From an uncultured Rhodobacterales bacterium (GTDB lineage Bacteria > Pseudomonadota > Alphaproteobacteria > Rhodobacterales > Rhodobacteraceae): a stretch of 32,808 bases of DNA. A program made the translations under genes and the position numbers. Location of the stretch: positions 1 to 32,808 of the forward strand of contig CAIQOV010000029.1 of the NCBI GenBank assembly GCA_903873585.1, written 5' to 3'. The notes under the pieces were generated by a model. That model made no database searches, was not told the DNA's origin, and was given only the letters and a program-made list of their open reading frames with translations. Positions 2,471 through 20,107 of the stretch are shown here, in pieces; the stretch's first letter is position 1, and every line of letters starts with the position of its first letter.

Positions 2471-2501
2471 GCGCGGGGCCGTGAAACCCAAGGCCCCGCG
2501 C
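2471..2501 (-). terminator. Rho-independent-type terminator after the FAH gene
   Basis: A perfect 10-bp GC stem (GCGCGGGGCC, 2471-2480, with GGCCCCGCGC, 2492-2501) and an 11-nt loop lies 8 bp past the stop of the FAH-family gene. On the minus strand it is followed by T-rich DNA (GATTTTA, then ATTTTTA) rather than a clean T run. It separates the murA-FAH transcript from the methyltransferase gene. Confidence 0.75.
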
Positions 2502-2509
2502 AAGTTCTG

Positions 2510-3352
2510 TTAGTCTGCGATCACATCTTGGCGTTGTTGGCCCAAGCCTGCAATGCCCAATTCCACCACATCGCCCGCTTTCAGGAACTGTGGCGGCTTC
2601 ATCCCAAGGCCCACGCCGGGCGGGGTTCCGGTGGAGATCACATCGCCCGGATGCAGCGTCATGAACTGCGACAGGTAGCTGACAAGGTGTTTGACGCCGT
2701 AAACCATGGTTTTGGTCGAGCCGTTCTGGCGGGTGACGCCATTGACCGTCAGCCACATGGCCAAATCTTGCGGATCGGCGACTTCATCGCGGGTCACCAG
2801 ATAGGGGCCGATTTGGCCGAAGTTGTCGCAGGATTTGCCCTTGGTCCACTGGCCCGCACGTTCGGCCTGAAAGGCGCGTTCCGAGACGTCATTGGTGATG
2901 GCATAGCCCGCGACGTAATCCAGCGCGTCAGCTTCGGCCACGTATTTGGCCTTTTTGCCGATGATAACGGCCAGCTCCACCTCCCAGTCGGTCTTTTCCG
3001 ATGTGCGGGGGATGATGATGGGGTCGTTCGGGCCGCAGATGGCGGATGTGGCCTTCATAAAGATGATCGGTTCGACAGGCACTTTTGCGCCGGTTTCGGC
3101 GGCGTGGTCGGAATAGTTCAGGCCGATGCAGATGAACTTGCCCGTGCCTGCCACGCAAGGCCCAAGGCGGGTGGTGGCGGGGACGATGGGCAAAGTTGCA
3201 GCGTCCATCGCCCGCAGCATGGCTAGGCCCGCATCAGAAATGACCGCCCCACCAATATCGGGCACAAGGCCGGTCAGGTCGCGGATCGTGCCGTCAGAAT
3301 GCAACAGGCCCGGATGTTCAGCCCCAGACGGGCCGTGGCGCAGAAGTTTCAT
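2510..3352 (-). CDS. Fumarylacetoacetate hydrolase (FAH) family protein, probable 2,4-diketo-3-deoxy-acid hydrolase
   Basis: 280 aa, one FAH catalytic domain. Seen: FICIGLNYSDHAAE, the metal-binding E-x-E in DWEVELAVIIG, ITNDVSERAFQ, the lysine/aspartate stretch WTKGKSCDNFGQIGPYL, and STGTPPGVGLG near the C-terminus; these are the usual divalent-metal and oxyanion elements of the family. The ATG at 3352 follows a GGGGGGAA ribosome site. It lies 12 bp after the stop of a short-chain dehydrogenase gene. That FAH plus SDR pair is typical of the non-phosphorylative L-fucose/L-rhamnose-type pathways, where the SDR makes a 2,4-diketo-3-deoxy acid and the FAH enzyme cleaves it to pyruvate and a hydroxy acid. 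FAH family members are hard to assign by sequence, and other acylpyruvase or hydratase substrates are possible. The upstream sugar dehydrogenase and dehydratase genes are not in the window. Confidence 0.85.
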   Translation of the reverse strand: MKLLRHGPSGAEHPGLLHSDGTIRDLTGLVPDIGGAVISDAGLAMLRAMDAATLPIVPATTRLGPCVAGTGKFICIGLNYSDHAAETGAKVPVEPIIFMKATSAICGPNDPIIIPRTSEKTDWEVELAVIIGKKAKYVAEADALDYVAGYAITNDVSERAFQAERAGQWTKGKSCDNFGQIGPYLVTRDEVADPQDLAMWLTVNGVTRQNGSTKTMVYGVKHLVSYLSQFMTLHPGDVISTGTPPGVGLGMKPPQFLKAGDVVELGIAGLGQQRQDVIAD

Positions 3353-3364
3353 GGTGTTCCCCCC

Positions 3365-4102
3365 TTAAATATTGGCCCAACCGCCGTCGATCACATGGGC
3401 GACGCCGGTGGTATAGCTGGATTCGTCGCTGGCCAGATAAACGACCAGATTGGCAATTTCTTCGGCCTTGGCAATGCGGCCGATGGGTTGGCGGGCGATG
3501 AAGGCGGCTTTGGCGGCTTCATAATCGCCCGTATCGCGCAGGCGCTGGTCAAGCGAGGGGCTTTCCACCGTGCCGGGGCAGATCGCATTGGCGCGGATGC
3601 CCTTGGTGACAAAATCGGCGGCGATGGATTTGGTAAGGCCAATGACGCCGGCCTTGGTCGCGCCGTAGACAAAGCGGTTGGGGGCTGCGATGACCGATCC
3701 TGCCACCGAAGCCATGTTGATGATCGACCCGCCGCCATGGGCGATCATGGCAGGCAGGAAAGCTTTGCACATACGGTACATGGCCGTCATGTTCAGATCC
3801 ATGGAAAAGGCCCATTGATCTTCGTCACAGTCCAAGATCGTGCCAGCGGCCACAAAGCCTGCGCAGTTGAACAAAATGTCCAAGCCGCCGATTTCCGCCG
3901 CAGCATCTTCGACGGCGGCTTTGTTGCGCACATTCAGCAGGCGCGTTTGCAGGCCAAGGCTGGCCAGATGTTCCAGCGACGTGCCGTTGATATCGGCGGC
4001 GATCACCTTTGCCCCCTCACGGTGCATGGCAAGGGCAGAGGCAAGACCAATCCCCTGCCCTGCCGCTGTTACCAAAGCTGTCTTGCCTGTCAGTCTGCCC
4101 AT
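3365..4102 (-). CDS. Short-chain dehydrogenase/reductase, 2-keto-3-deoxy-L-fuconate dehydrogenase-like
   Basis: 245 aa classical SDR. The NAD(P)-binding glycine motif is AAGQGIG (13-19), followed by FNCAG and a catalytic Ser in INMASVAGS with YGATK as the Tyr/Lys pair. PGTVESPSL and the C-terminal VIDGGW are also typical. The ATG at 4102 has a GGGGGA ribosome site; a longer in-frame extension to 4171 would run into the DUF2948 gene and is rejected. An aspartate after the second beta strand (VIAADINGTS) favours NAD over NADP. The close link to an FAH hydrolase suggests oxidation of a 2-keto-3-deoxy sugar acid. The family also includes (R)-3-hydroxybutyrate dehydrogenase type 2, which cannot be excluded. 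The gene starts 13 bp after the DUF2948 gene, so it probably shares a transcript with murA. Confidence 0.85.
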   Translation of the reverse strand: MGRLTGKTALVTAAGQGIGLASALAMHREGAKVIAADINGTSLEHLASLGLQTRLLNVRNKAAVEDAAAEIGGLDILFNCAGFVAAGTILDCDEDQWAFSMDLNMTAMYRMCKAFLPAMIAHGGGSIINMASVAGSVIAAPNRFVYGATKAGVIGLTKSIAADFVTKGIRANAICPGTVESPSLDQRLRDTGDYEAAKAAFIARQPIGRIAKAEEIANLVVYLASDESSYTTGVAHVIDGGWANI

Positions 4103-4115
4103 CGTATCCCCCGTT

Positions 4116-4592
4116 TCAAATGGTATGCGCGGGCGCTTGGCCCGAATTGGCGCGGTAAGGGCGGCTGACATCGGTCAACGTCACCTCAATCGCCTCAACC
4201 TCTAACAAGACGACCCCGCCACCTGACAAAACGATTTCCACCGCTCCGCCTTGGTCACTCGGGGTAAAGCCAACCGACAGCAGCGACAAAACCGCGGCCG
4301 TATCGCCCCGATCAAGGTTCTGGCTGCGCACGCTCAAGACGGTTTCAAACACCAACAGGCTGCGAACGCGTTCAAACGGGCGGCCTGTGCGTGCGGCGGC
4401 GGGGCTATCTTCCCACCGAAAGCGGTTGAGCAGCAGGGCAAAGCGGTGCTGGCGCTTGGCATAGGTCATTTCCGTGATGGGAAAGACCGCATCCTGCGCG
4501 AGAGAGGCTAAAACCTGCAAATCCCGCGCATCTTGCGCCATCAACCGCAGTGGCGCATCGTCGCCGTCTTGAAAGCGGGCGTCTTGGGTCAT
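4116..4592 (-). CDS. DUF2948 family protein
   Basis: 158 aa, soluble, without signal peptide or membrane segments. The pattern ([23 protein letters not shown] near the N-terminus, then [31 protein letters not shown] and [11 protein letters not shown]) matches the DUF2948 family, found almost only in Alphaproteobacteria beside murA. The start codon overlaps the murA stop by four bases (ATGA), so the two are translationally coupled. The function is unknown. In related genomes hisD commonly follows this gene; here an SDR gene does. Confidence 0.85.
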
Positions 4593-5857
4593 TGGCTGAT
4601 CCGCTCAATCTGCGCCCCGCAAGCGCGCAGTTTTTCTTCCAACCGTTCATATCCGCGATCAAGGTGATACACGCGGCTGACCACGGTTTCGCCTTCGGCA
4701 GCCAAAGCCGCCAGAATAAGACTGACCGAAGCGCGCAGATCAGTGGCCATCACCCGCGCGCCTTTCAGACGCGCCACACCGGTGACTTTGGCCGTGCCAC
4801 CATGCACCTCGATCTTGGCGCCCATGCGGGTCAATTCGGGGGCGTGCATGAAGCGGTTTTCAAAAATGCGCTCTTCCAGAACCGAAGTGCCTTCTGCGGT
4901 GCACAAAAGCGCCATCATCTGCGCTTGCAGATCGGTCGGAAAACCGGGGAAGGGTTCTGTCACCACATCCACCGCATGCACACGGCCATTCTTGCGCGAC
5001 ACTTTCAACCCGCGCTCGGTTTGGGTCACCGACACCCCCGCCGCATCCAGCTTTTCGGCAAAGGCCCCGACAAGTTCCAGCGTGCCGCCCAAACATTCTA
5101 CTTCACCACCGCAAATGGCGGGCACCAGCATATAGGTGCCCAGTTCGATGCGGTCTGTGACGACGGGATGGGTGGCCCCGTTTAGGCGGTCAACGCCTTG
5201 GATGGTGATGGTTGATGTCCCCTCACCCTCTATCTGCGCGCCCATTTTGCGCAGGCAGCGGGCCAGATCAACGATCTCAGGTTCGCGCGCGGCGTTTTTC
5301 AGAACCGTCGTGCCCTTGGCCAAAGTGGCCGCCATCAGCGCGTTTTCTGTAGCCCCGACCGAGACGAAGGGAAAGTTCACCACCGCCCCGCGCAACCGCC
5401 CACCGGGGGCCTTGGCGTGCACATAGCCATCGCGCAGATCAAGCTCAGCCCCCATCGCCTCAAACGCCTGCAAATGCAGGTCGACGGGCCGCGCGCCAAT
5501 GGCACAGCCGCCGGGCAAAGACACCACCGCATGGCCATCGCGCGCCAGCATTGGGCCCAAGACAAGGATCGAGGCGCGCATCTTGCGCACAATGTCATAA
5601 TCCGCCGTGTGATTGGCGATGTTGTGCGATGACATGGCCAGCACCAGCCCGTCTTGCAGGCTGGCAACCTCTGCCCCCAACGACTGCAAAAGCTGCGTCA
5701 TGGTGGCGATGTCTGACAGGCGTGGCGCGTTGGTCAGGGTTAACGGTTCTTCCGACAAAAGCGTGGCCGGCATCAGCGTCAGGCAGGCATTCTTCGCCCC
5801 CGCAATCGGAATTGTGCCCGACAATGCGCCGTTGCCTTTGACCAGAATCGAATCCAT
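4589..5857 (-). CDS. murA: UDP-N-acetylglucosamine 1-carboxyvinyltransferase
   Basis: 422 aa, full length. It transfers enolpyruvate from PEP to UDP-GlcNAc, the first committed step of peptidoglycan synthesis, in the cytoplasm. Seen: IAGAKNAC (K22, N23), the active-site loop [15 protein letters not shown] with the reactive Cys at about 118 (so fosfomycin-type inhibition is expected), and [11 protein letters not shown] with the conserved Asp. The C-terminal [21 protein letters not shown] and [14 protein letters not shown] are also hallmarks. It starts 9 bp after a small upstream ORF, with GGCGGG as ribosome site, and overlaps the DUF2948 gene by four bases. It lies outside the main cell wall cluster of this window, as is usual. 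Confidence 0.97.
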
Positions 5858-5866
5858 GTGCCCGCC

Positions 5867-6058
5867 TTACTTTGTTTCTTGTGGTGCCGTGGCGTTGCCA
5901 TTCGGCATATCATTTGGGTCGTCGCCCGCATCTTGCGCCCCGCGCGCACGGGCCTGCGCCTTCCTGCGGCCCATATTGGCCTTCAGGGCGGCTTTCAACC
6001 TGTTCTCACGGGTTAAAGCGGCAGAGTTTTTCGGATTTGAGCCGGTTTCGCGCGTCAT
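5867..6058 (-). CDS. Small basic hypothetical protein upstream of murA
   Basis: 63 aa from the ATG at 6058; in-frame starts at 6076 and 6127 would give 69 or 86 aa, and none has a clear ribosome site. The middle is a lysine/arginine-rich helix (RENRLKAALKANMGRRKAQARAR) and the tail is acidic and polar. I recognise the pattern from small proteins encoded just before murA in Rhodobacterales, but no function is known. The gene probably opens the murA operon. Confidence 0.6.
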   Translation of the reverse strand: MTRETGSNPKNSAALTRENRLKAALKANMGRRKAQARARGAQDAGDDPNDMPNGNATAPQETK

Positions 6059-6182: not shown

Positions 6183-6257
<75 letters not shown>

Positions 6258-6363: not shown

Positions 6364-7728
6364 ATGGCACGGCGCATAGCAGCAAACTCAGCAGACTTTG
6401 AGACGGTGATCACGGACAAATTCCGTACAACACCCATTGCAGCGACCATCTCAAAAATCACAGGTCTGCCCACCTCCGCCATCGTCTATCGATGTGCCGC
6501 AAGTTCCTATTGGCAGTTTCGTGTGTTCCTTGAAGGCAAACCGCGCAAACGCTCAACCAAACAAGTTGAGTTACTTAAGGCCAAAGACGCAGCCAAGGTG
6601 ATTTATGCTGAGATGCTGCTGAGTGTGCATGCTGGCGAAACCAAGGCCAAGCCGTCGTCGGCCAAGTCGCTGGAAATCATCGCCAATTCCCTTTGGCTCA
6701 AGAACACCACGCGGATCGCCAACGGCGAATTGCACAAGGACACTGTCAGCAAAGACAAGTATGTCTACGAGCGGCATATCAAGCCGTTCTTTGCCAACAC
6801 GGACGTCAAGAAGATCGACACTGACTTGTTGGACGACTTTAGGACCTACTTGACCAACAAAGGCCTAAAGCCGGGCACGCAGCTGAGCTACATGAACTTG
6901 GTGATGTCCTTGCTCAAGCAAGCGCAGATTAAAAAGCACATCGTGCATGTGCCCGTGAAACCCAAGATCAAAGTAGAAGACGAAACACGCGGCTACTTCG
7001 ATGACGCGGATTATGCCAAGCTGATGAACACAGCCCAATCCGCCGTGGGTCTGCAATTTGGCTTTCCAACCAAAGACGGCACAATCTATCGTCGCATCAC
7101 TCTGTCATCTGAATTGCCGCTGCTGATTGACTTCATGGTCAACACCTATGTGCGCCCCACTGACATTGCCGTGCTGCGCCACAAGCATGTGCACATTGTT
7201 GAGGCGCAAGGCATCAAGTTCATAGAACTGCGCCATCCTGCCACCAAAGAGCACAGCAACCATATGATGGGCAGCGAACAGTCGTATTTCAGCTACTTCG
7301 CCATAAAGGACGTGCAAGAAAAGCTGGGCATGGCCAAGCCCGAAGACTTTGTGTTCGCACCGGATTTGGCAAATCGTGAAACGGCGCTGGACAAGCTGGG
7401 CACACAGTTCACCGCAATTTTGCTGCTAGCGCAGCTGCGCAAGGATGACGAAGGCAAGCCACGGAGCTTGTACAGCCTGCGGCACACGGCCATCGTGCGG
7501 TCAATCCACAAGGGCCTGGCCATCGAACTGATAGCAGCCAACTCGCGCACCAGTTCTGACATGATCCGCAGGTTCTATGGCTCACACGTCAAAAGCGTGC
7601 GCTACATGGGCACAGCTTTTGTGGACAAGGAAGTTGCAGCTCGCGAAAAGCGTGTTGAGCAGCTTAACGCCAAGTACGATATGACACCCGCTAAGCCTGA
7701 CAGTTTGACGGACGAAAAGAGCAAATAA
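6364..7728 (+). CDS. Tyrosine recombinase (phage-type integrase)
   Basis: 454 aa. An N-terminal arm-type region is followed by a core-binding SAM-like domain (about 125-195, YVYERHIKPFF...YLTNKGLKPGTQLSYMNLVMSLL) and a catalytic domain (about 210-410). Catalytic residues seen: Arg264 (TYVRPTDI), a likely Lys at about 295, the SLRHT box (R373, H374; the usual first His is Tyr/Ser here, as in several integrase subfamilies) and nucleophile Tyr405 in RRFYGSH. It would carry out site-specific integration and excision. Its position immediately downstream of tRNA-Thr in the same orientation is classic for a genomic island. The frame is intact. The two genes that follow are convergent with it and strongly AT-rich. 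I found no copy of the tRNA-Thr 3' end downstream to mark the other border. Confidence 0.92.
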   Translation: MARRIAANSADFETVITDKFRTTPIAATISKITGLPTSAIVYRCAASSYWQFRVFLEGKPRKRSTKQVELLKAKDAAKVIYAEMLLSVHAGETKAKPSSAKSLEIIANSLWLKNTTRIANGELHKDTVSKDKYVYERHIKPFFANTDVKKIDTDLLDDFRTYLTNKGLKPGTQLSYMNLVMSLLKQAQIKKHIVHVPVKPKIKVEDETRGYFDDADYAKLMNTAQSAVGLQFGFPTKDGTIYRRITLSSELPLLIDFMVNTYVRPTDIAVLRHKHVHIVEAQGIKFIELRHPATKEHSNHMMGSEQSYFSYFAIKDVQEKLGMAKPEDFVFAPDLANRETALDKLGTQFTAILLLAQLRKDDEGKPRSLYSLRHTAIVRSIHKGLAIELIAANSRTSSDMIRRFYGSHVKSVRYMGTAFVDKEVAAREKRVEQLNAKYDMTPAKPDSLTDEKSK

Positions 7729-7783: not shown

Positions 7784-8506
7784 TTAAGAGCATGGGCACC
7801 TATCTTTCATGCGCCAGATTTTTTTTGCATGAGATAAACTTTCCTGCGGCAGTGAAATCGATGCGTGCCGTAGTGATACGTCTAGTTCAAACACCAACTT
7901 TGTTGGATAGGCAATCGCTAAATGCTCATCGAGATATGTATATAGAAATTCATCATCATCCCTGTACACTCTGAAACGCTTTACAAGATCAGACTCACTA
8001 GAAACGAGGCAGTTATGGAAGGCTGGGTCTGTGAAAACATGAGTATAATTTACATTTTCACGATGCTCCCGAAGTTTGCCATAGGCCTCTTGTGAATCAG
8101 ATGAAAAAAACCACTGTTTATCTAGTTGTCCAATTTTTTTGATTTCTGCCCAATTCCAATGGTGGCTCGATGAACCACCTTTCAAGAACTTGCATCTGGG
8201 AATATTAAGCATCATTTGGTTTCCAGAACTGAACGGAACTACCTCATGAATAAGAAGCAATGCACGAATACTATAAAAACAAGAATAGTATAGCCGGACA
8301 ACAGACCAGGAGATAGACCCATGCTGCAGTGCATACATCGCTTCTCCATAAGAAATAATGGCCGCATAAGCAGAGCCGATCACGGCATCTTCAAGAGTTG
8401 CTCCAATTGCCAAAATTTCACCGACACTGGGGCCAAAGCTTGAGAATGGAGTTCCCTGAGGTTTCTTCATGAAAGACAGTTTTGCTAATTTTGCTGCGTC
8501 TGACAT
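7784..8506 (-). CDS. HEPN-like protein, partner of the DGQHR gene
   Basis: 240 aa, no signal peptide or membrane segment. I do not recognise a named family. The segment WSVVRLYYSCFYSIRALLLIHEV (67-89) resembles the first long helices of HEPN-fold proteins, and KLREHRENVNYTHVF (144-158) offers an R-x6-H arrangement (R149, H156) like the HEPN ribonuclease motif. Between them lie small polar loops. The gene is AT-rich compared with the core genes around it and lies 16 bp downstream of the DGQHR gene in the same direction, with only a weak ribosome site, so the pair is probably one transcript. By analogy HEPN proteins in islands are often RNases or their regulators in toxin-antitoxin or anti-phage systems. 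That role is inference; structural prediction would be needed to confirm the fold. Confidence 0.7.
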   Translation of the reverse strand: MSDAAKLAKLSFMKKPQGTPFSSFGPSVGEILAIGATLEDAVIGSAYAAIISYGEAMYALQHGSISWSVVRLYYSCFYSIRALLLIHEVVPFSSGNQMMLNIPRCKFLKGGSSSHHWNWAEIKKIGQLDKQWFFSSDSQEAYGKLREHRENVNYTHVFTDPAFHNCLVSSESDLVKRFRVYRDDDEFLYTYLDEHLAIAYPTKLVFELDVSLRHASISLPQESLSHAKKIWRMKDRCPCS

Positions 8507-8522
8507 TATCGGATCGGAAATT

Positions 8523-9542
8523 TTACACTTTGAACCCAGGCGTAGAACTATTAGGTCTGAAAAAACTGATCAATTTATCTCGGATCACATTTGCAGCTTC
8601 GGCGCCACCGAGACCCTTGACATCTTCTTGCAATACTCTGCTTGTTTCGTCCATAGCCAACGCATCAATTATCGTGGATTTTTCGAATGATGATTGGCCT
8701 TTACAGTAGTCGAACATATGGCTTCTAAAAAATTCAATCGCACCAATAAATCCGGACGCATATATGAATGCGTTTCCTTTGTCATCCCAATGTCGACCAT
8801 ATTTTAATTTCAAAGCCCCGAAGAAATTTGAGAAAATCGCCTTCTGAATTTCTAACTCTGTCGCGCCAATTTGCTCAAGTTGCCCCTTAAGATCGACCAA
8901 AGGCTTTAAAGCATTAACTGCAGTCGATAGAGCCACGCCTCCGCGTTGCCGTTCTTGGTTCGGAAGTTTAATCCAATTCAGATACGGTTGACCCTCAGCG
9001 CCAAGATGAGCAACAATGTCATTAGCACGTATTGCCGCTGGATCCATCAGGTCAGACGCTGTCACCCCATAGAGATCAAAAACTAGGCTTTTAGGTGCTG
9101 GTCGTTGCTCTGTGTTAATCGATATAAAAATTCGCGCACTGTGTGCAGTATCTAAGCCCTCGTAAATCGCAACTGGGATCTGAAAGTCTGCGATAGTTGG
9201 ATCATCGTCAATTGCAGATTTGAGCCCGGCTACTCTATGCTGACCATCGATAATTTGCGCAACTTTAGGCTCATCGAAAATTTCAACCGATCCATTGTTC
9301 GATACCAAGTTTCCGCTTTTCCAGTTCAATACGATCGAGGCAGGAAAATCGCCCATTCTCAAAGCGAAATCCTTTATACCAGCGATCCGAGAAGTATTCA
9401 GAACCCTTTGAACAGCCCCCTCCTCCTCGTCCTTTCTACGAACAGCAGCATAGGAAATCCGCGTTAGTAGTCCTGCTGGCAACGAAACAAGCTTAAAGGA
9501 GTGTTCCTTCTGCTTCACGGGTATAAATTGAAATAGCGGCAT
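8523..9542 (-). CDS. DGQHR domain protein (DndB-like)
   Basis: 339 aa. The diagnostic motif IIDGQHRVAGL (DGQHR at 99-103) is followed by FISINTEQRP (139-148), the conserved pair of the DGQHR/DndB family. An N-terminal region (SLPAGLLTRISYAAVRRKDEEEGAVQRVLN, about 20-50) resembles the start of DndB-type proteins. DndB regulates DNA phosphorothioation operons; other DGQHR proteins sit alone or with unknown partners in defence and mobile islands. No dndCDE, pbe or ssp genes are present in the window, so this is not a complete Dnd system. The start at 9542 has GTGAGGCAAG just upstream. Its stop is 16 bp before the HEPN-like gene. Base composition is clearly lower in GC than the flanking operons, a sign of transfer. 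Confidence 0.85.
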   Translation of the reverse strand: MPLFQFIPVKQKEHSFKLVSLPAGLLTRISYAAVRRKDEEEGAVQRVLNTSRIAGIKDFALRMGDFPASIVLNWKSGNLVSNNGSVEIFDEPKVAQIIDGQHRVAGLKSAIDDDPTIADFQIPVAIYEGLDTAHSARIFISINTEQRPAPKSLVFDLYGVTASDLMDPAAIRANDIVAHLGAEGQPYLNWIKLPNQERQRGGVALSTAVNALKPLVDLKGQLEQIGATELEIQKAIFSNFFGALKLKYGRHWDDKGNAFIYASGFIGAIEFFRSHMFDYCKGQSSFEKSTIIDALAMDETSRVLQEDVKGLGGAEAANVIRDKLISFFRPNSSTPGFKV

Positions 9543-9607
9543 CTTGCCTCACTCACTGTTTTGAAGAACACTAGGCAAACTGCTGCGTTTCGTCTAGTGG
9601 TAAGCAT

Positions 9608-10041
9608 CAGGCTGGGCCGCGTACCTTCCCCAGACCTGCATTCCCGTCGCATCATCGGCTGGGCTGCGAGCCAACCGAATGAAGCGGGATTTGGCGATCC
9701 GGGCTCTGAGGATGGGCATTGCCTTAAGGTCTCCTCCGCGTGGCTGCATCTTCCATAGCGATCGCGGCAGTCAGTATTGTTCGCATGACTATCAAAAAAT
9801 CCTGCGCGCGCATGGGTTCAAAGCGTCAATGAGCGGCAAAGGCAATTGCTATGACAATGCCGCCGTTGAGACGTTCTTCAAAACCATCAAGGCCGAACTG
9901 ATCTGGCGCAGGTCATGGGAAACCCGTCGACACGCGGAAGCCGCCATCTTCCAATATATCAATGGCTTTTATAACTCGCGCCGTCGGCATTCAACATTGG
10001 GAGGGAAAAGCCCCTTGGCCTTCGAACGACAAGTGGCTTAA
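9608..10041 (+). mobile_element. Decayed IS3-family transposase (OrfB) remnant
   Basis: The C-terminal half of an IS3-type integrase core. A first piece reads DLHSRRIIGWAAS (frame of 9561-9758), then an extra base near 9673 moves the match to the frame of 9679-10041, which carries FHSDRGSQY (second catalytic Asp), GNCYDNAAVETFFKTIKAEL (catalytic Glu) and the FYNSRRRHSTLGGKSPLAFE tail. The first catalytic Asp region (TDIT) is missing, and about 7 bases are lost between the YL and DLH codons. The element is dead. It closes the AT-rich accessory segment and lies just before the promoter region of the ABC operon. Confidence 0.9.
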
Positions 10042-10146
10042 ACGAGCATTCGGAGCGGCACGAATACGTGACAGGTCCACCGGCGCATGACCGGCTCGGA
10101 CATGTTCGGGATCATGGTGCGCACAGAGCTACACCACGCTATGGGA

Positions 10147-10163
10147 CACGATCCAAGATCGTG
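10147..10163. repeat. Small inverted repeat after the IS3 remnant
   Basis: CACGATC and GATCGTG (7 bp) are separated by three bases. It may belong to the lost end of the IS3-type element or be an operator; nothing in the sequence decides this. Confidence 0.35.
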
Positions 10164-10240
10164 CCTGAAGCTTGAGAAAAGTGCAGCCGTCAGCAGAAAA
10201 AACTAGCCAAAAAACATTATCTCTGCGCTAAATTCTTTCC

Positions 10241-10256
10241 TGTGAGGAAATTCACA
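10241..10256. promoter_or_regulatory. CRP-type palindrome upstream of the ABC operon
   Basis: TGTGA-GGAAAT-TCACA matches the classical CRP/FNR-superfamily site TGTGA-N6-TCACA in both half-sites. It lies 63 bp before the start of the solute-binding protein gene, a suitable place for an activator or repressor. The regulator is not encoded in the window. Confidence 0.5.
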
Positions 10257-10318
10257 TCCGATCTTTCTGCCTACCTTACGTGCGATTAATCAAACATAAA
10301 CGCGAACAGGGTGAAAAA

Positions 10319-11266
10319 ATGCTGAAATATCTGAACACTGCGCTTGGCGCAGCTGCACTATCGCTGACATTGGGGGGTATGCCGCAAGCGGCTTTTGCCC
10401 AAGACTCAGCCGAACCGATCGTCATCCCGACTCACAACTGGTCCAGCCAAGTGGTGATGGCCTATGTGATCGGGGGTATCTTCCAAAGCATCGGCGATAC
10501 CGTTGAATATGTGCCTGCAGACTCGCAAGCTGTTTATGAAGCCATCCGCAACGGCGACGTGACGATCAGCCACGAAGTCTGGCAGTCGACCTTTGGCGCA
10601 TCGTTCTACAATGCCATGGCACAGGGCGGCATCATCGATGCCGGCAACCACGAAGCCATGACCTTGGAAGAATTGGGTGTGCCCCACTACGTCATTGAGC
10701 AAAACCTTTGCCCCGGTCTGCCGGATTGGGAAGCGCTTAAGAACTGCCCGGAAGTGTTTGCAACCGCTGACTCCGAAGGCAAAGGCCGCATCTTGGAAGG
10801 TCCGCAAGATTGGCACGGCGACTTGATGCCCGATCGTATCAAGGCGCTGGGTTTGGATGACAAATATGTCGTCAAGTTTGCAGGCTCTGCTGATGCAATC
10901 TGGGCAGAACTTGCTTCGGCTAAGAAAGAAGGTCGCGGGATCATCACGTTCAACTGGACCCCGAACTTCACCGATGCCGAAGGCTTCGATTTCATCAAGT
11001 TCCCCGCCTACACCGATGGCTGCCGCAAGGCTGATGGCGGTGATGGCAGCTGTGGCTCGCCCATTGGCTGGCTGAAGAAAGCGGCGAACTACAAGTTCCC
11101 CAAAACCCACCCGAAAGCTTATACGATCTTCACCAAGATTTCGTTCACCACTGCCCAAATCGGGCAAATGGCGGCCTTGGTTGATATCGACAAAATGAGC
11201 CACGAAGACGCCGCCAAAAAGTGGCTGGCTGACAACGAGGCCGTTTGGATGCCTTGGACCAAGTAA
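10319..11266 (+). CDS. ABC transporter solute-binding protein for a quaternary amine or TMAO-type solute
   Basis: 315 aa with a Sec signal peptide (hydrophobic stretch 7-20, cleavage probably after AAFA, residues 24-27). The mature part fits the OpuAC/ProX type II periplasmic binding fold: IVIPTHNWSSQVVMAYVIGGIF at the start, EVWQSTFGASF, and many aromatic residues (W, Y, F) expected for a cation-pi cage. Two Cys pairs (NLCPG...KNCPEV and DGCRK...GSCGS) could form disulfides. The ATG at 10319 has an AGGGTG ribosome site; an upstream in-frame start at 10280 is rejected because it would precede the signal peptide. With the ATPase and fused permease behind it, the operon resembles the TmoX-type trimethylamine N-oxide importers of marine Rhodobacterales. 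Choline, glycine betaine or carnitine are alternatives. Confidence 0.88.
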   Translation: MLKYLNTALGAAALSLTLGGMPQAAFAQDSAEPIVIPTHNWSSQVVMAYVIGGIFQSIGDTVEYVPADSQAVYEAIRNGDVTISHEVWQSTFGASFYNAMAQGGIIDAGNHEAMTLEELGVPHYVIEQNLCPGLPDWEALKNCPEVFATADSEGKGRILEGPQDWHGDLMPDRIKALGLDDKYVVKFAGSADAIWAELASAKKEGRGIITFNWTPNFTDAEGFDFIKFPAYTDGCRKADGGDGSCGSPIGWLKKAANYKFPKTHPKAYTIFTKISFTTAQIGQMAALVDIDKMSHEDAAKKWLADNEAVWMPWTK

Positions 11267-11302
11267 AGTGACGGCCTGTGAAAGCGGGCTTTGCAAGATA
11301 GA

Positions 11303-11334
11303 CCTTACCCCCGTGCATTGCGCTGGGGGTAAGG
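11303..11334 (+). terminator. Intercistronic hairpin between binding-protein and ATPase genes
   Basis: A perfect 10-bp stem, CCTTACCCCC (11303-11312) with GGGGGTAAGG (11325-11334), and a 12-nt loop in the 120-bp gap. There is no T run, so it more likely protects the upstream message or attenuates, letting the binding protein be made in excess of the membrane parts. Confidence 0.55.
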
Positions 11335-11386
11335 CTTTGAAAGGGGCATCCATTCCCCCTGACCAGCCATTTTCGGGAAAGACGCC

Positions 11387-12451
11387 ATGGCCCAAACTGA
11401 CCGTGCTCCCTCGTCTCAGCCAGTCATCAAGTGCGAGGCGGTTTACAAAATTTTTGGCGATAATGCTGCCACAATGATGCGCAGTTCGGGCGGTGTGGTT
11501 GAAACGGCTGCCTTTCAGGCGGCTGGCTGTATCGTTGGTGTCAACAAAGCCACGTTTGAGGTGCAAAAGGGTGAGTTGCTTATTGTCATGGGCCTGTCCG
11601 GCTCTGGCAAGTCAACGCTGTTGCGCTGCATTTCAAGATTAACCGAGCCTACTGCAGGCAAAATTTTCATCGACGGCGAAGATTTAACCGCCATGTCGGG
11701 AAAGCAACTCGTCGAACTTCGGCGCAACAAGATGGGCATGGTGTTCCAAAGCTTTGCCTTGCTGCCGCATAAGACCGTGTTGGAAAACATCGCCTTCCCC
11801 TTATTGATCAAGGGCCAATCCACCGCCGCCGCCATCAAACGCGCGATGGAAATGATGGAACTAGTCAGCCTGAAGGGGCGCGAAAACTACTACCCCCGCC
11901 AACTGTCGGGCGGTCAACAGCAGCGCGTGGGAATCGCCCGATCCTTGGCGGTCGAGCCTGATATCTGGCTGTTAGATGAGCCGTTTTCAGCCCTTGATCC
12001 GCTGATCCGCAAGGAAATGCAGGATGAATTCCTGCGCCTGCAGGGCCTGCTGCAAAAGACCATCCTCTTTGTGACCCATGATTCTGAAGAAGCCCTGCGC
12101 CTAGCCGACCGGATCGCCATCATGAAGGACGGCGTGATCGAACAATTGGATACGCCGGCCAACATCGTCTTGCACCCTGCCACAGACTATGTCGCCAAGT
12201 TCACCCGCGATGTGCCGCGCGAAAAGGTGTTAAGCTGCGCCAATCTGATGGAGCCGCTCAGCGCCGATCCGGTCAGCGCCATGACAGTGCACAAAGACGC
12301 CCTTATCGCCACGGTGGCCGAGGCTGTCTTGAGCGAAGGCAATCCGGTACAGGTGGTGGATGATGCGGGCAGGCCCGTGGGGCTTTTGAACCGTAAAACC
12401 GTCTTGCACGTCTTGTTCGGTGCGCGCGTCCCGCAAGGCTTAGTCGGATAG
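11387..12451 (+). CDS. Quaternary amine-type ABC transporter ATP-binding protein
   Basis: 354 aa. Walker A GLSGSGKST (69-77), Q loop VFQSFALLPH, signature LSGGQQQR (173-180), Walker B IWLLDEP, D loop SALDPL, and H loop FVTHD. The N-terminal stretch before the Walker motif, with the ATMMRSSGGVVETAA insertion, and the C-terminal CBS-like tail (about 280-345, DALIATVAEAVLSEGNPVQVVDDAGRPVGLLNR) are those of ProV/OpuAA-type ATPases. Such CBS tails sense ionic strength in osmolyte importers, but the domain is short here. It energises uptake through the permease encoded 10 bp downstream. The ATG at 11387 is the first good start, with GGGAAAGA upstream. Confidence 0.92.
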   Translation: MAQTDRAPSSQPVIKCEAVYKIFGDNAATMMRSSGGVVETAAFQAAGCIVGVNKATFEVQKGELLIVMGLSGSGKSTLLRCISRLTEPTAGKIFIDGEDLTAMSGKQLVELRRNKMGMVFQSFALLPHKTVLENIAFPLLIKGQSTAAAIKRAMEMMELVSLKGRENYYPRQLSGGQQQRVGIARSLAVEPDIWLLDEPFSALDPLIRKEMQDEFLRLQGLLQKTILFVTHDSEEALRLADRIAIMKDGVIEQLDTPANIVLHPATDYVAKFTRDVPREKVLSCANLMEPLSADPVSAMTVHKDALIATVAEAVLSEGNPVQVVDDAGRPVGLLNRKTVLHVLFGARVPQGLVG

Positions 12452-12461
12452 GGTGGGCAAG

Positions 12462-14521
12462 ATGCGCGCAGACCTTCTCCGCTCTGGCTTTGCAAAGTTT
12501 GCCCTGCTGATTGCGGTTTTTTTGGTGCTGTACTTCGCCATTCCAGCGGTAGAGGGCAATTACCTGTGGCGCTTGCCGCATCTGATCTCTGGCTGGCCCG
12601 AGCAGATCAACAAATTCGTCCGGTTTCTGATGTTCGATTGGCTACCGATCGACATCTATGATCCGGAAATTGAGGAATACGAAGCCTCGCCGCTGATCAA
12701 GGAGGTGACGCGCGCCTTTTCGACGGGCATACTGTTTTGTATCAATTTTCTGCGCGAGTTCTTGTTGGGCGGGGCTAAGACCTTAGCTGCCTTTGCCGGC
12801 TGGGATTATGCGCGCGCCCATCCCGACCTTGTTTGGCCGGCCTTGCCGTGGACGATTGTGGCGGCAGGCGCAGCCCTGCTGGGTTATGCGCTGAAGGGCG
12901 GTGGCTGGCAGCGCTGGCGGCTTGTGCCACGCTTTACATCGCGGTTTTCGGGCAATGGGAACCTGCGATGGAAACCCTGTCGCTGGTCTTGATTGCAGCC
13001 CCCATCGCCTTTGCGCTTGGGTTGCTGTTGGGGGTTTGGGCCTTTCGCTCACGGGCTGTTGAAGCGGTTCTGACCCCGCTTTTGAACGTCGCCCAAACCA
13101 TGCCGCATTTTTCCTATCTGGTGCCTGTCATGGTGATGTTTGGCGTGGGCGACCATGCAGGTGCCATCGCCACCATCATTTTCGCCACCCCGCCCATGGT
13201 GCGTTTGACGATGCTGGGCCTCAAGAAAGTGCCGATTGAAGTGGTTGAAGCCGCTGTGATGAACGGCTGCACCAACCGCCAACTGATGCTGAAAGTGATG
13301 ATCCCTGCCGCGCGGCGCGACATTTTGATCGGCGTCAACCAAATGATCATGCAGTGCTTGGCCCTTGCGGTGATCGCCTCTTTCATCGGGGCAAAGGGCT
13401 TGGGATTCAATTTGCTTTTGGCGCTGAACCAATTGCGGATCGGTCAGGCGTTGGAACTGGGCATCTGCATCGTGCTGATCGCTGTGGTGCTAGATCGCCT
13501 GTCTTTGGCTTGGGCCAACAAAGCGACCGACTACTTTGCCGACCAAAGCTTTGCGGTGCGGCACAAGTATTCCTTGGTCTTTGCCGTTATCGTTCTTGGC
13601 GGCGTCGCTCTGGCCTACCTCGGCCGTTTCATTTTTGCGGACGGCATCAATTACTTTTACATGATCCCCCATAATGAGGGGATCACCACAGAAAACTTCT
13701 GGCAATCGGGCGTCGATTGGATGGTGGAAAACTGGTATCAAGGACTGCAAGGCTTCAACCGTTGGCTGATCACTCAGGTGCTGATCCCGATGAAAACCGC
13801 CTTTTTGGGCATGCCGGTTATTGCGACATTTGTGTTGACGATGGGCACTGGGTTCATCGTGGGCGGCAAGCGGTCGATGGCGACGGTCGGGCTGTTCTTG
13901 CTGTTCATCGCCCTGACCGATTGGTGGGACAGGGCGCTGATCACGGCCTATATGGCGACCTTTGCCGTAATCGTTTCCGTTGCAATCGGGTTTGGCATTG
14001 GTGTCTTGTCTGCGCGCAGCGATAGGGCCAGCAGGATCGTGCTGTTGGTCTGCGACACGCTACAAACCTTTCCCTCCTTTATCTATCTGATCCCGGTCAT
14101 CATGCTCTTTGGCGTAACTGACACCTCGGTTCTGATAGCCGTTATCATTTACGCCACCATCCCCGCCGCGCGCTATACGATTGAGGGGCTGCGCGCTGTG
14201 CCCCTACCCCTGCAGGATTTGGGCCGGATGTCTGGCGCAAATCGTGCCCAAAACTTTTTTAACATAGAACTGCCCCTAGCCCTGCCGCATATCATGCTTG
14301 GCATCAACCAAACCGTGATTTTCGCACTGTTCATGGTGATCATCGGGGCCATGATCGGGACAGATGATTTGGGACAGTATATCCTGAAGGCACTGTCGGA
14401 TAAGAACGGCATAGGCAATGGCTTGATGCTGGGCCTTTGCGTGGCCTTTATGGGGCTTGCGGTGGATCATGTCATCCAAACATGGGCACGAAAGCAGCGC
14501 GAAGCATTGGGCATCACCTGA
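12462..14521 (+). pseudogene. Fused two-domain ABC permease gene with a frameshift
   Basis: The ATG at 12462 follows AGGGTGGG. Reading from there gives membrane segments (FALLIAVFLVLYFAIPAV) and a periplasmic part up to GYALKGGGW near 12910. This frame then loses sense and stops at 12992. The family sequence continues in another frame from LAALAACATLYIAVFGQWEPAMETL (about 12920) to 14521. A single lost base between about 12893 and 12925 explains it. Joined, the product would be about 686 aa with two MetI-like permease modules, each with its EAA loop (EVVEAAVMNGCTNRQLMLKV and the LPLQDLGRMSGANRAQNFFNIELP region). Such fused permeases go with TMAO/glycine betaine ATPases in Rhodobacterales. No slippery heptamer is seen, so programmed frameshifting is unlikely; a true mutation or an assembly error remains. 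Confidence 0.82.
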
Positions 14522-17058: not shown

Positions 17059-19884
17059 TCACACAGTCAAAGACGCCGCATCGACAAGGACCGAACTGGT
17101 CCCCCCGACTGAGTTTAAGGTTAGCTGAACGGCGTTGCCCGCTAGATCACTCAAAGTGCCGCCGTTCAGAGCAATGCTGCTGGCCACGGTTATGCCGTCA
17201 GCGTCGGTCGTGCCGCTGGGAACAACCGCCTCAAATACCAGCGCGGAGCCGGTCCCCGATACATAATTCGCGTAAACGGTGGCGCCGCCCACGTCTAGCG
17301 CAATGCGCGGTGTGCCATTTGTCGTGTCAGCTGTAACATCTTTTGACCAATTCACCGTAAAAATCAGGCTTTGCCCAGCCCCATAAGTCGCATTGCTCGG
17401 CACCGTGACCGATGTCACGACGGGGGCGATCATGTCGACGGCGTAGTTGGCGGTGACAACTGAGCCAACCCCCGCATTTCCGGCTCTATCGGTCAAATTG
17501 GCCATGTTTAGGCTGATAACGTTTGTGGGGCTATTCACGTATCTATTCGGCGTCAATATAGCTGTCCACCGCTTCCCATCAAAACCCAAGCTGCCAAGCC
17601 CATGAAGTGTTCCGTTGGCAACTGTCATGTCATCATAGGAAAAACCCATCACAGGCTCGTCGAAGGTGATGGATACGTTCCCTTCTTGCTCTTTGTTCAA
17701 GGTGGATGGGTTTACACTAATCGTCGCTGTCGGGCGCACGGTATCAACGGCGTAGTTGTTGCTGTTAACTGTGCCGCTGCCGGCACTTGGGCCAGCAAAG
17801 GTCACGCCAGTCATGTCTAGGACAATAACGTTTTCGGTTTCAGAAGTGGCCGCTGCGGGGGTAAAGGTTGCGGTCCATGTGACGTTATCGGCACTGACAA
17901 CATCTGTAAGTGCGCCGCTGGGGATTGTTAGATCATCATTGGTGAAATCTGTCACCGCTGCGGTGAAAGTAAAGGTCACTGTAGATGTTTCGCCAATGCT
18001 TAACACGTTGTCGGCAACTAAAATGCTCGCATCTGGAAGCGCAGTATTGACAGCATAATTGTTGCTCTCGGCTATGCCTGACCCCCGATTGTAATTTACG
18101 TCAAGAATTTCATTCATTAACAATTGAATTACATTGGTGGAGGCCGTAGGTGCTGAATTGATCTCTAGCGTTGATGTCCAAGTCGTTCCGCCGTCCAAGG
18201 AGGAGAAGTCCGTCAATGATCCTCCGGCCGGAACAATGAAGCTCTCTAAATCAGGGGCATAGCCCAAAGGTTCGCTGAAGGTTACGGTCACCAAAGACGA
18301 ATCCCCGTCGTTTAACTGGTTGTCCGCAATGACGATGGTTGCTGTTGGGGCCGTCGTGGATTTGGGCTTTTCTACATAAATACTGACAGTGTCTGCGACT
18401 GGGTCGGTATACTGGCCATGGCCCACAACCAACGAGAAGTTCAGTACCGCGTCGCCATCGACCCAAGCTGGGGCGGTGAATGTTGGCATCGCGGCCGTTG
18501 CGCTGGATAATGTGACGGTAGGGCCTGCGGTTTGGGTCCAAAGATAGGTCAGGCCGCTGCCGGTGGAATCTGCCCCGTTCAGCGTGACGGTCGCCCCTGA
18601 AACGACAGTCTGATCCCAATCTGCGTATGCGTGAACTTCGACGCTGTCTTGAACGATAACGGCACTGGTCGCCCCAACACTGTTAAGGGTAAGCACCGCT
18701 GCATTGCTCTGCCAATCAACGATAGAACCCCCGTTCAAATCAATACTGCCGGCAACGCCGACGCCGCTGCCGGTCGGATCATCAGCACCCGTCTGCACTA
18801 TATATTGAAAAACCAATGCAGCGCTGCCCGAACCTGAGCGATAGGTGGCATAAACGGTGCTGGTGCCCGCGGTCAGGGCAATGCGCGGCGTTCCTGTGAC
18901 TGCAACATTCTCTGACAGATTGACGGTAAAGGTCAGGTTTTGGCCAAGCCAATAGTACCCAGCGCTTGGCACGCTGACCGATGTAACCGTCGGACTTGTG
19001 CCGTCCGTTAGGACAAAATCCTTGTTGTACCCCAGCGATGATGCTGCCCCGAGCGCGGGCAAGACCAAAGCGGCATTCAAGGCGTCGCTGTCTTTGATCG
19101 TTCCCCCGTTCAGCTCCAATGCCGTCGAGCTAGCGTAGTCAAGATCAGCGGTAGAGTCGGCGGCTTGAACGGTGTATCTAAAGGTCAGCACCGAAGTGCC
19201 CGTGCCCGAAAGATAGGTCGCGACCCCGTCGGTTGCCCCGGTTTCCAATTGCAATTGCGGCGTTCCTGTGACGGTAACGGGCCTTTCAAACGTCACGTCA
19301 ATGTCAAACGTATCCCCGGTGCTATAGGTGCCATTTGTTGCCGTAGAGGTGACGCCCGTTATGCCTGCACCGTAATCAATATTGATAGATTGGGGGCTGG
19401 TTTTGCCAGCGATTACGCTAAATGTAATTTTTCCGAACGTCGTTGTGGCTACAAAATCATTATTGGTCGTATAGGGCTCAAACGTTCCGGGGTTATTCAC
19501 ATCAGCACTATACCATTTCGCAGTGATGTTATTTAATTCGGGTATCGAGGGTGTTCCCATAAAGTTATTCCGAGTTGCGCTAACCTGTATATCAGAATTG
19601 TTAACAATACCGTTAATGGATTGTTGATAATATGAAAATTGAAAAGCATTTGAATTACGATAAAAGTAAAGGCGAACGCCATTTTTCGGCAAAGCTGTTG
19701 GACGGCTGTTATTGGCAAAAGAACTGCAGGTTCTTGCATCATAATCTATGACGAACGTCGATCCGTCTTCACTGCTTATGTCACCTGTTCCGGCGCAGGT
19801 GACCGAACTGTGCGTCAAGGTGCCAAACAGAGATAGGAAAGCAGCAATGAAAGCTACATAAGCGGATCGACGAAAGCGTGACAT
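17059..19884 (-). CDS. Large surface adhesin, N-terminal part with Ig-like repeats
   Basis: 941 aa to a TGA at 17059. The ATG at 19884 follows AAAAGGG and begins a signal peptide (AYVAFIAAFLSLFGTLTHS, 8-26). A unique domain with two Cys follows (to about 170), then repeated beta-sandwich modules of about 90-130 residues with the motifs GTYSTGDTFDIDVTFERPVTV, GTPRIAL...TVYATYRSGSGSAALVFQY, and TVTFSEPL...WTSTLEI. One PKD/REJ-like module is recognisable (DQTVVSGATVTLNGADSTGSGLTYLWTQTAGPTVTL). These are typical of secreted or surface-anchored adhesins. The frame does not shift after the TGA: SVTVPTNGTYRTGQN continues directly in the next ORF. So this is the front of one gene of about 1650 codons ending in a beta-barrel. 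As it stands the product lacks its membrane anchor. Confidence 0.85.
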   Translation of the reverse strand: MSRFRRSAYVAFIAAFLSLFGTLTHSSVTCAGTGDISSEDGSTFVIDYDARTCSSFANNSRPTALPKNGVRLYFYRNSNAFQFSYYQQSINGIVNNSDIQVSATRNNFMGTPSIPELNNITAKWYSADVNNPGTFEPYTTNNDFVATTTFGKITFSVIAGKTSPQSINIDYGAGITGVTSTATNGTYSTGDTFDIDVTFERPVTVTGTPQLQLETGATDGVATYLSGTGTSVLTFRYTVQAADSTADLDYASSTALELNGGTIKDSDALNAALVLPALGAASSLGYNKDFVLTDGTSPTVTSVSVPSAGYYWLGQNLTFTVNLSENVAVTGTPRIALTAGTSTVYATYRSGSGSAALVFQYIVQTGADDPTGSGVGVAGSIDLNGGSIVDWQSNAAVLTLNSVGATSAVIVQDSVEVHAYADWDQTVVSGATVTLNGADSTGSGLTYLWTQTAGPTVTLSSATAAMPTFTAPAWVDGDAVLNFSLVVGHGQYTDPVADTVSIYVEKPKSTTAPTATIVIADNQLNDGDSSLVTVTFSEPLGYAPDLESFIVPAGGSLTDFSSLDGGTTWTSTLEINSAPTASTNVIQLLMNEILDVNYNRGSGIAESNNYAVNTALPDASILVADNVLSIGETSTVTFTFTAAVTDFTNDDLTIPSGALTDVVSADNVTWTATFTPAAATSETENVIVLDMTGVTFAGPSAGSGTVNSNNYAVDTVRPTATISVNPSTLNKEQEGNVSITFDEPVMGFSYDDMTVANGTLHGLGSLGFDGKRWTAILTPNRYVNSPTNVISLNMANLTDRAGNAGVGSVVTANYAVDMIAPVVTSVTVPSNATYGAGQSLIFTVNWSKDVTADTTNGTPRIALDVGGATVYANYVSGTGSALVFEAVVPSGTTDADGITVASSIALNGGTLSDLAGNAVQLTLNSVGGTSSVLVDAASLTV

Positions 19885-19902
19885 ACAAAGGCCCTTTTGC
19901 AA

Positions 19903-20107
19903 ACCCTGGGTGAAAGATTTGAACGTCTGGTGAGGATCAAAACAAAGTGTTAGGATTTATTCCTAAATCATTTGCGGAAACAAAAAACCTAAACTTTAGG
20001 ATGATTTTTCTATCTTAAGGATAGAAATCATGTTTCATACGCACCAATCATTACGCTAAAGTCCCAAAAACGCGCTTAGGGTTCTTGTTGGAACGCGGCG
20101 CTTTAGC
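19903..20107. promoter_or_regulatory. Adhesin upstream region with clustered TTAGG/CCTAA palindromes
   Basis: AT-rich DNA before the adhesin start holds a run of dyads: TTAGGA-TTTAT-TCCTAA (19950-19966), CCTAAACTTTAGG (19988-20000) and CTATC-TTAAG-GATAG (20010-20024). All share TTAGG- or TAAGGA-like half-sites, so this looks like a multi-site operator. Confidence 0.5.

What the first reader, a model, noticed from the sequence alone, without database searches (positions are those of the whole stretch)
7784..9542. Two-gene DGQHR plus HEPN-like unit in a recombinase-borne island: candidate new defence or toxin-antitoxin system
Seen: an AT-rich gene pair, 16 bp apart on one strand, next to an intact tyrosine recombinase at tRNA-Thr. 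The first gene has DGQHR (99-103) and INTEQRP (142-148). The second has HEPN-like helices (67-89) and an R-x6-H motif (149-156). Known: DGQHR proteins include DndB, the regulator of DNA phosphorothioation, and HEPN proteins are common RNases in defence islands. No dnd, ssp or pbe genes are present. Inference: the DGQHR protein may sense or bind DNA and control a HEPN effector, as a compact system independent of phosphorothioation.
Basis: partly seen in the sequence, partly recalled or inferred. Interest (0 to 1): 0.72.

Follow-up and report, generated by a model that had tools for sequence, protein, structure and literature searches.

The report
Mobile DGQHR-HEPN gene pair, function untested
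Two neighbouring genes, one resembling a nucleotide-driven switch and one a likely RNA-cutting protein, occur side by side in different bacteria and on viral DNA, which makes them a good but untested candidate for a new variant of a two-gene phage-defence or toxin-control system.

Summary
In detail: P0001 (DGQHR, 339 aa) and P0002 (HEPN-like, 240 aa) lie 16 bp apart at the stated coordinates. The pairing is not local. Of the HEPN relatives that scans found, 7 of 7 close ones in species genomes and 9 of 9 in viral contigs have the DGQHR gene directly upstream; 4 of 4 DGQHR hits in viral contigs have the HEPN gene downstream; 0 of 16 ordinary HEPN loci from the same scan have DGQHR. Distances correlate (r 0.90, 16 pairs, 0 of 9999 permutations). 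Some relatives lie near phage or restriction genes. The HEPN assignment rests on profiles: Pfam 20.8 bits against a cut-off of 22, but 96% probability against true PF05168 proteins; structure prediction was off. H156 is kept in 9 of 18 members; H115, R149 and Y154 in 18 of 18, as in HEPN-T proteins. ParB-fold plus HEPN operons were tabulated in 2013, and a review lists the proven antiphage system PD-T4-2 with both domains, so this is a new variant of a known kind. Defence, toxicity and mechanism are untested.

The parts
6183..6257 (+). tRNA-Thr (GGT), likely integration site; in a same-genus genome the matching tRNA-Thr is followed, about 9.5 kb on, by 48 bases identical to the 3' part of this tRNA
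6364..7728 (+). tyrosine recombinase/integrase, 454 aa, open throughout
   Evidence: Phage_int_SAM_5 2.5e-7; PHROG integrase 1.1e-18
7784..8506 (-). HEPN-like protein, 240 aa, second gene of the pair
   Evidence: Pfam HEPN 20.8 bits, cut-off 22; 14 of 18 family members match PF05168 at E<=0.1, none better than this one; hhalign to 13 PF05168 proteins, probability 96.3, E 1.8e-9
8162..8164 (-). codon of H115, the histidine conserved in 18 of 18 members
8039..8062 (-). R149-x6-H156 (RENVNYTH); R149 and Y154 in 18 of 18 members, H156 in 9 of 18
8523..9542 (-). DGQHR (DndB-like, ParB/Srx-type) protein, 339 aa, first gene of the pair
   Evidence: TIGR03187 97.8 bits, cut-off 58.85; Pfam DndB 59.5 bits, cut-off 29.1
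9234..9248 (-). codons of DGQHR, residues 99-103
   Evidence: DGQHR in 17 of 17 members, FxxxN in 17 of 17, QR in 16 of the 16 that reach that far
9679..10041 (+). part of a transposase (rve domains; IS3-type by eye), right-hand decay of the island

Best explanation
It is a mobile two-protein conflict module. The DGQHR protein is a ParB/Srx-fold, NTP-dependent switch that keeps the HEPN protein in check and sets it free when it senses an invader, probably foreign or phage DNA or a changed nucleotide state. The freed HEPN protein then cuts RNA and stops growth, so the phage does not spread. Shown here: the two genes, their fixed order, co-inheritance and co-divergence, mobile settings for some, the DGQHR/QR/FxxxN motifs, and the HEPN-T-type residues H115, R149 and Y154. 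Inferred: NTP binding and hydrolysis, RNase activity, physical contact of the two proteins, the trigger and the defence role.
For: Pairing both ways: 7 of 7 close HEPN hits in genome contigs, 9 of 9 viral HEPN hits and 4 of 4 viral DGQHR hits, and 2 further genomes found by the HEPN profile; 0 of 16 ordinary HEPN loci from the same genome scan carry DGQHR in the held flanks. Distances correlate, r 0.90, 0 of 9999 permutations over 16 pairs. Near the viral-contig pairs lie phage integrase (2 loci), gpA terminase, P2-type replication protein, tail fibre and HsdR genes; one divergent pair sits on a plasmid beside a NotI-family restriction enzyme and a methyltransferase. HEPN by profile, linked to solved UPF0332 protein 2hsb through the PF05168 set. 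By analogy: in DndI, R87 of the DGQQR motif is needed for ATP hydrolysis and for full phage resistance, and the ParB-like N-domain lowers DNA binding by the nuclease domain (PMC11662687, passages); a DndB-like protein binds ATP and GTP (PMC12704722, passages).
Against: The HEPN Pfam score is under the curated cut-off, and no solved structure matches the family profiles meaningfully (best E 0.39 for HEPN, 0.3 for DGQHR). Class II (PF05168) HEPN toxins are reported to lack the RX4H RNase motif (PMC7641770, passages), so catalysis is uncertain. No PADLOC model matches the HEPN family (0 of 18 at E<=1). No record of the 50,697 deposited phages matched either of two HEPN queries, so the phage link rests on IMG/VR contigs, which may be proviruses. 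The pair is rare: P0002 in 1 of 385 class genomes and 2 of 394 family genomes, own genome included.
Confidence: 0.5

Rival explanations
1. A plain toxin-antitoxin module that stabilises its mobile element: HEPN is the toxin and DGQHR its antitoxin and/or autorepressor, with no infection sensing.
For: Two short co-oriented genes, patchily distributed. [quoted passage not shown]
Against: DGQHR is larger than usual antitoxins (recalled), and it is the more conserved partner (68-77% against 47-55% identity). Settings near R-M and phage genes fit defence at least as well.
Confidence: 0.25
2. DGQHR is the effector (NTP depletion or DNA nicking, as proposed for ParB/Srx enzymes) and the HEPN protein is a catalytically dead binding or specificity subunit.
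For: The His of the R-x6-H motif is missing in 9 of 18 members. HEPN domains fused to nucleotidyltransferases are described as potential substrate-binding domains that lost the motif (PMC3710099, passage), and ParB-superfamily proteins are proposed as nucleotide-degrading or nuclease effectors (PMC10853773, passages).
Against: H115, R149 and Y154 are invariant in 18 of 18, which a mere scaffold would not need; in HEPN-T proteins an alternative His with the motif's basic residue may form an active site (PMC3710099, passage).
Confidence: 0.15
3. An accessory pair of the mobile element itself (replication, anti-defence or regulation), not a defence for the host cell.
For: One pair lies 13 bases after a P2-type replication gene and another is near a terminase gene. 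Some ParB-fold fusions are enriched in prophages and anti-defence has been suggested for them (PMC12704722, passage).
Against: Pairs also lie elsewhere: divergent ones on plasmids, and chromosomal ones with no phage gene among the 9 neighbours scanned (most of these 9 had no Pfam match).
Confidence: 0.1

Closest known systems
PD-T4-2 (E. coli antiphage system)
   Same: A review lists it with both a DUF262 (ParB/Srx-type) and a HEPN domain (PMC10952713, passages); its deletion from the native strain strongly raised T4 plaquing (PMC9519451, passage).
   Different: The review assigns DUF262 and PF18735; the window proteins hit PF14072 and, below cut-off, PF05168. In PADLOC the DGQHR proteins match only DndB/DpdB models and the HEPN proteins none. 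Its gene make-up was not read from a primary source here.
HEPN families in operon with ParB genes (RiboL-PSP-HEPN, MAE_28990)
   Same: A ParB-superfamily gene in operon with a HEPN gene, tabulated in 2013 (PMC3710099, passages).
   Different: Other HEPN families. The MAE_28990 operons also hold a DNA methylase, and P0002 has no Pfam hit other than PF05168.
DndB / DpdB
   Same: DGQHR, QR and FxxxN motifs; same Pfam and TIGR03187 domain. [quoted passage not shown]
   Different: Far under the equivalog cut-offs (26.2 of 328 and 32.5 of 300 bits); no dndC or dndD found in the genome.
HEPN/MNT toxin-antitoxin (HepT/MntA; class II PF05168)
   Same: A HEPN protein encoded after a nucleotide-handling partner; class II toxins are PF05168 with a conserved Tyr and no RX4H (PMC7641770, passages).
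   Different: The partner is a DGQHR protein, not an MNT nucleotidyltransferase.
SspE / DndI / GmrSD
   Same: A ParB-like DGQQR NTPase domain controls a nuclease (PMC11662687; PMC10952713; passages).
   Different: There the nuclease is an HNH DNase, mostly in the same polypeptide; here it is a separate HEPN protein.

Membership tests
DGQHR domain family (TIGR03187 / PF14072) | score above the curated cut-off; DGQHR, QR and FxxxN motifs | tested here: met
   97.8 bits (cut-off 58.85) and 59.5 (29.1); DGQHR and FxxxN in 17 of 17, QR in 16 of the 16 that reach it
DndB / DpdB / DGQHR_dnd_1 equivalogs | score above the equivalog cut-offs | tested here: not met
   26.2/328, 32.5/300 and 73.4/450 bits
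Dnd phosphorothioation system | dndC and dndD in the genome | tested here: not met
   no match to TIGR03183 or TIGR03185 at E<=0.001 in the own draft genome, 95% complete; none of the 14 control genomes is over the cut-off either, so there was no true positive control
HEPN superfamily | Pfam PF05168 above its gathering score | tested here: not met
   window protein 20.8 bits against 22; 14 of 18 members match at E<=0.1, the best E being the window protein's own 4.4e-4
HEPN superfamily | profile-profile match to true PF05168 proteins | tested here: met
   probability 96.3, E 1.8e-9, with H115, R149 and Y154 aligned to their His, Arg and Tyr; the 13 comparison proteins are PF05168 but were recruited by a shared YY-helix pattern, so only the His/Arg/Tyr part is independent
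HEPN superfamily | Rx4-6H motif across the family | tested here: inconclusive
   Arg 18 of 18, His at R+7 in 9 of 18, Tyr at R+5 in 18 of 18, a further His (H115) in 18 of 18
HEPN superfamily | HEPN helical fold | not testable with these tools
   structure prediction switched off
HEPN/MNT toxin-antitoxin | MNT nucleotidyltransferase partner | tested here: not met
   partner is DGQHR; no nucleotidyltransferase hit
PD-T4-2 | DUF262 plus PF18735 HEPN; match to defence-library models | tested here: not met
   neither Pfam family hit by the window proteins at E<=10; PADLOC gives only DndB/DpdB for DGQHR (P0001 2.9e-6 and 1.5e-8; 17 of 17 members) and nothing for HEPN (0 of 18)
Antiphage or toxin-antitoxin system | protection, toxicity and neutralisation | not testable with these tools
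   needs bench work

The most novel reading that the evidence does not exclude
A new way to control a HEPN RNase: a ParB/Srx-fold NTPase takes the place of the MNT antitoxin and switches the HEPN partner by an NTP-dependent step, possibly by modifying the invariant Tyr154, which stands at the place of the canonical Rx4H histidine. Sensing of DNA or of nucleotide pools would then be turned into RNA cleavage. The module would be a broad family shared by prophages, plasmids and islands, independent of phosphorothioation.
Probability: 0.12. Interest if true: 0.8.

Novelty: new variant of a known kind. Interest (0 to 1): 0.58.

Why it matters
In the plasmid records seen here, DGQHR proteins mostly bear only the domain name. 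One branch of them has a fixed HEPN partner, which gives it a testable role and two assayable proteins. If the switch works as proposed, it ties ParB-fold NTP sensing to RNA cleavage in trans, explains a set of DGQHR-hypothetical gene pairs, and separates the DndB fold from phosphorothioation.

Tried and rejected
R-x6-H as the family active site: rejected as a universal signature (9 of 18). Single-sequence HEPN searches in plasmids, viral contigs and phages gave nothing, as did a relative's HEPN protein in phages and plasmids and a DNA search of that relative's pair in E. coli genomes. A two-sequence DGQHR alignment also failed in viral contigs; larger alignments worked. Solved-structure searches with the two proteins and with the two family profiles gave only noise. 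A right att copy for the window island was sought and not found. Membership in Dnd, Dpd, HEPN/MNT and PD-T4-2 was considered and not accepted. HEPN partners for all DGQHR proteins: rejected; 10 of the 14 plasmid loci looked at (14 of 54 matching records, 40 of which were listed) have none by profile. Of the 4 that do, two are weak on first search (L055 E 0.044, L058 E 0.41; a gene next to DGQHR in L063 that I do not count scored 0.48), and they separate from L063 only in a second round with L005 and L006 added to the profile (1.5e-4, 2.7e-4, against 1.9). None of the 7 divergent partners given to Pfam hits HEPN.

Rows dropped: L010 (N-terminus cut by the contig end) and L038 (near copy of L037) from the distance test. 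A9 took 13 of the 16 ordinary HEPN loci. Neighbours given to Pfam were 19 ORFs that I picked by hand, not every neighbour.

Full report
OBSERVATION. P0001 (339 aa, minus strand 9542 to 8523) has DGQHR at 99-103 and INTEQRP at 142-148. P0002 (240 aa, 8506 to 7784) follows after 16 bases and has R149-x6-H156. The stretch has GC 0.43-0.45, against 0.60-0.62 at 2501-6000 and 0.53-0.58 at 10001-14000. It lies behind tRNA-Thr (6183-6257) and an open tyrosine-recombinase gene (6364-7728; PHROG integrase 1.1e-18). A transposase remnant at 9679-10041 (rve domains) follows, and then genes that read by eye as a choline-type ABC transporter. No 13-mer of the tRNA recurs in the window, which is the whole contig (contig length), so the island is a remnant or its right end is lost. 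In a genome of the same genus the matching tRNA-Thr (89% identical) is followed about 9.5 kb on by 48 bases identical to the 3' part of the window's tRNA, with other genes between, among them one that reads by eye as an integrase; what lies beyond does not match the window's right flank. This suggests that the tRNA is used as an integration site.

FAMILIES. P0001 is a DGQHR-domain protein: TIGR03187 97.8 bits over a cut-off of 58.85, and Pfam DndB 59.5 over 29.1. It is not DndB, DpdB or DGQHR_dnd_1, being far under those equivalog cut-offs. The genome has no match to dndC or dndD. P0002 hits Pfam HEPN PF05168 with 20.8 bits, cut-off 22.

THE PAIR IS CONSERVED. In 385 genomes of the class P0002 is found only in the own genome; in 394 genomes of the family, in the own genome and in one other. 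That one carries the same two genes (77% and 55% identity) in another setting, with a tRNA-Ala about 3 kb away and, by eye, an IS gene after it. One pattern-based scan of genome contigs with the two-row HEPN alignment gave 23 loci. Seven are close relatives (48-55%): by record title a Rhodobacterales and a Rhodobacteraceae genome, Nguyenibacter, Gluconacetobacter, Caulobacter, Rhizobium and another Rhizobiales genome. The Rhodobacteraceae one is the family relative just named. All 7 have the DGQHR gene directly upstream (in L010 it is cut by the contig end), with 10-19 bases between the genes. The other 16 are ordinary short HEPN proteins, and 0 of 16 have a DGQHR gene in the held flanks, which are short on one side for some. 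In viral contigs, 4 of 4 DGQHR hits have the HEPN gene next to them, and 9 of 9 HEPN hits have the DGQHR gene next to them. One contig is in both lists (L036, L045), four are near copies (L037-L040), and in L040 the HEPN gene runs off the contig. Two more genomes found by the HEPN profile have the pair as well: G1048, where the HEPN frame is broken, and G1435. Counts in wide samples are low: HEPN profile 2 of 398 genomes of the phylum, own included, and 2 of 390 of the order of G1048. The DGQHR profile at E<=1e-20 is in 6 of 398, of which 4 (own included) have the HEPN partner and 2 do not. The distances of the two proteins correlate over 16 pairs, r 0.90, 0 of 9999 permutations. This is co-divergence, and shared descent alone also yields it for linked genes.

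WIDER CIRCLE. I looked at 14 plasmid DGQHR loci, of 54 records that matched. In 4 the downstream gene fits the HEPN profile: Acinetobacter pTR3_4 next to a NotI-family restriction enzyme (3.8e-7), Leptospira (0.002), Providencia (0.044) and Burkholderia glumae (0.41). The last two reach 1.5e-4 and 2.7e-4 only after the first two had been added to the profile; a gene in L063 that scored 0.48 in the first round fell to 1.9. Two chromosomal loci, L051 and L052, score 7.2e-8 and 2.5e-5 before that. All six carry R-N-x-x-N-Y and, by eye, an upstream His. None hits Pfam HEPN, so the weaker ones are tentative. The other 10 plasmid loci have other neighbours, for example dnd genes, a GIY-YIG nuclease, or a small protein upstream that looks membrane-bound.

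SETTING. I gave 19 hand-picked neighbours to Pfam. In the viral-contig loci they include phage integrase (L033, L041), gpA terminase (L035), P2-type gpA replication protein 13 bases upstream (L044), tail-collar fibre (L043, about 4 kb away) and HsdR (L034). In chromosomal loci they include a polyphosphate kinase, an FtsH-type protease and a ParB_N protein; most of those 9 had no match. This fits an accessory unit that moves between elements. Whether the viral contigs are active phages is not known, and no deposited phage record matched two HEPN queries.

IS IT HEPN? No model could be made. The evidence is: 14 of 18 family members match PF05168 singly at E<=0.1; the best is the window protein, itself under the cut-off. 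The family profile matches a profile of 13 HEPN proteins with probability 96.3 and E 1.8e-9. Those 13 are PF05168 (13 of 13) and match the solved UPF0332 protein 2hsb and two deposited HEPN proteins. The 13 were recruited by a shared YY-helix pattern, so that part of the match is biased. The His, Arg and Tyr that line up beyond it are not. In the 18 members H115, R149 and Y154 are invariant, while H156 is kept in 9 (8 alphaproteobacterial members and L043). A 2013 analysis describes HEPN-T proteins such as 2hsb, and AbiV, which typically lack the motif His but have another conserved His before it (PMC3710099, passages). I place this family there. That source regards such proteins as possibly catalytic; another finds no RX4H motif in class II PF05168 toxins (PMC7641770, passages). 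RNase activity is thus likely but open.

MECHANISM. DGQHR domains are related to GmrS, for which a ParB/Srx fold is predicted and whose DGQQR motif is proposed as the NTP site (PMC4619093, passages). A DndB-like protein binds ATP and GTP (PMC12704722, passages). In DndI the motif Arg is required for ATP hydrolysis and full defence, and the N-domain lowers DNA binding by the nuclease domain (PMC11662687, passages). In PD-T4-2, DUF262 and HEPN are listed together (PMC10952713, passages), and the system protects its native strain (PMC9519451, passage). From this I infer an NTP-dependent switch (DGQHR) that restrains a HEPN effector and releases it on infection. Rivals are a plain toxin-antitoxin pair, DGQHR as the effector, and an element-serving function. 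Prophage-borne HEPN defence as such is known: Tha of staphylococcal prophages, with its inhibitor Ith (PMC11087260, passages).

NOVELTY. Full-text searches: 'DGQHR' 6 papers (passages read in 2, listing only for 4); 'HEPN' with 'DndB' 4 papers (passages read in all 4); at least two of DndB, ATPase, DUF262, ParB 1,072 papers, 25 listed; at least two of HEPN, ParB, 'phage defence' 79 papers, 20 listed (passages read in 8 of the 20); 'PD-T4-2' 4 papers (passages in 2). No paper was read whole. Nothing that I read describes a DGQHR-HEPN pair, though a 2012 paper ties DndB's N-terminal domain to the HEPN-bearing AIPR family (PMC3506569, passage). The library lacks most subscription papers, and DefenseFinder could not be searched, so a named system cannot be excluded. 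With the 2013 operons and PD-T4-2 as precedents, I rate it a new variant of a known kind.

Noticed in passing
L069 897-972 and 10492-10539 (unnamed same-genus genome G459): About 9.5 kb of other genes, with an integrase by eye (9131-10330, minus), lies between the matching tRNA-Thr and 48 bases identical to the window's tRNA 3' part; the site looks like an integration hotspot.
   Followed up: partly
L004 3277-5051, L007 4399-6104, L057 2317-4205: Other plasmid DGQHR genes have a small protein directly upstream that looks membrane-bound by eye, instead of a HEPN gene downstream; two of them are near BglII/BstYI-family restriction genes. Perhaps a second kind of DGQHR pair.
   Followed up: no
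   Followed up: no
window 9679-10041: Remnant of a transposase (rve domains) at the right end of the island; by eye an IS3-type gene also follows the pair in the related genome (L003, about 2799-3065).
   Followed up: partly
L037, L038, L039: By ORF coordinates (not aligned) three viral contigs share the region upstream of the pair but differ soon after it, as if the pair marks the edge of a variable cargo segment.
   Followed up: no
window 19001-20500: A second stretch of low GC (about 0.47) in the window, not examined.
   Followed up: no
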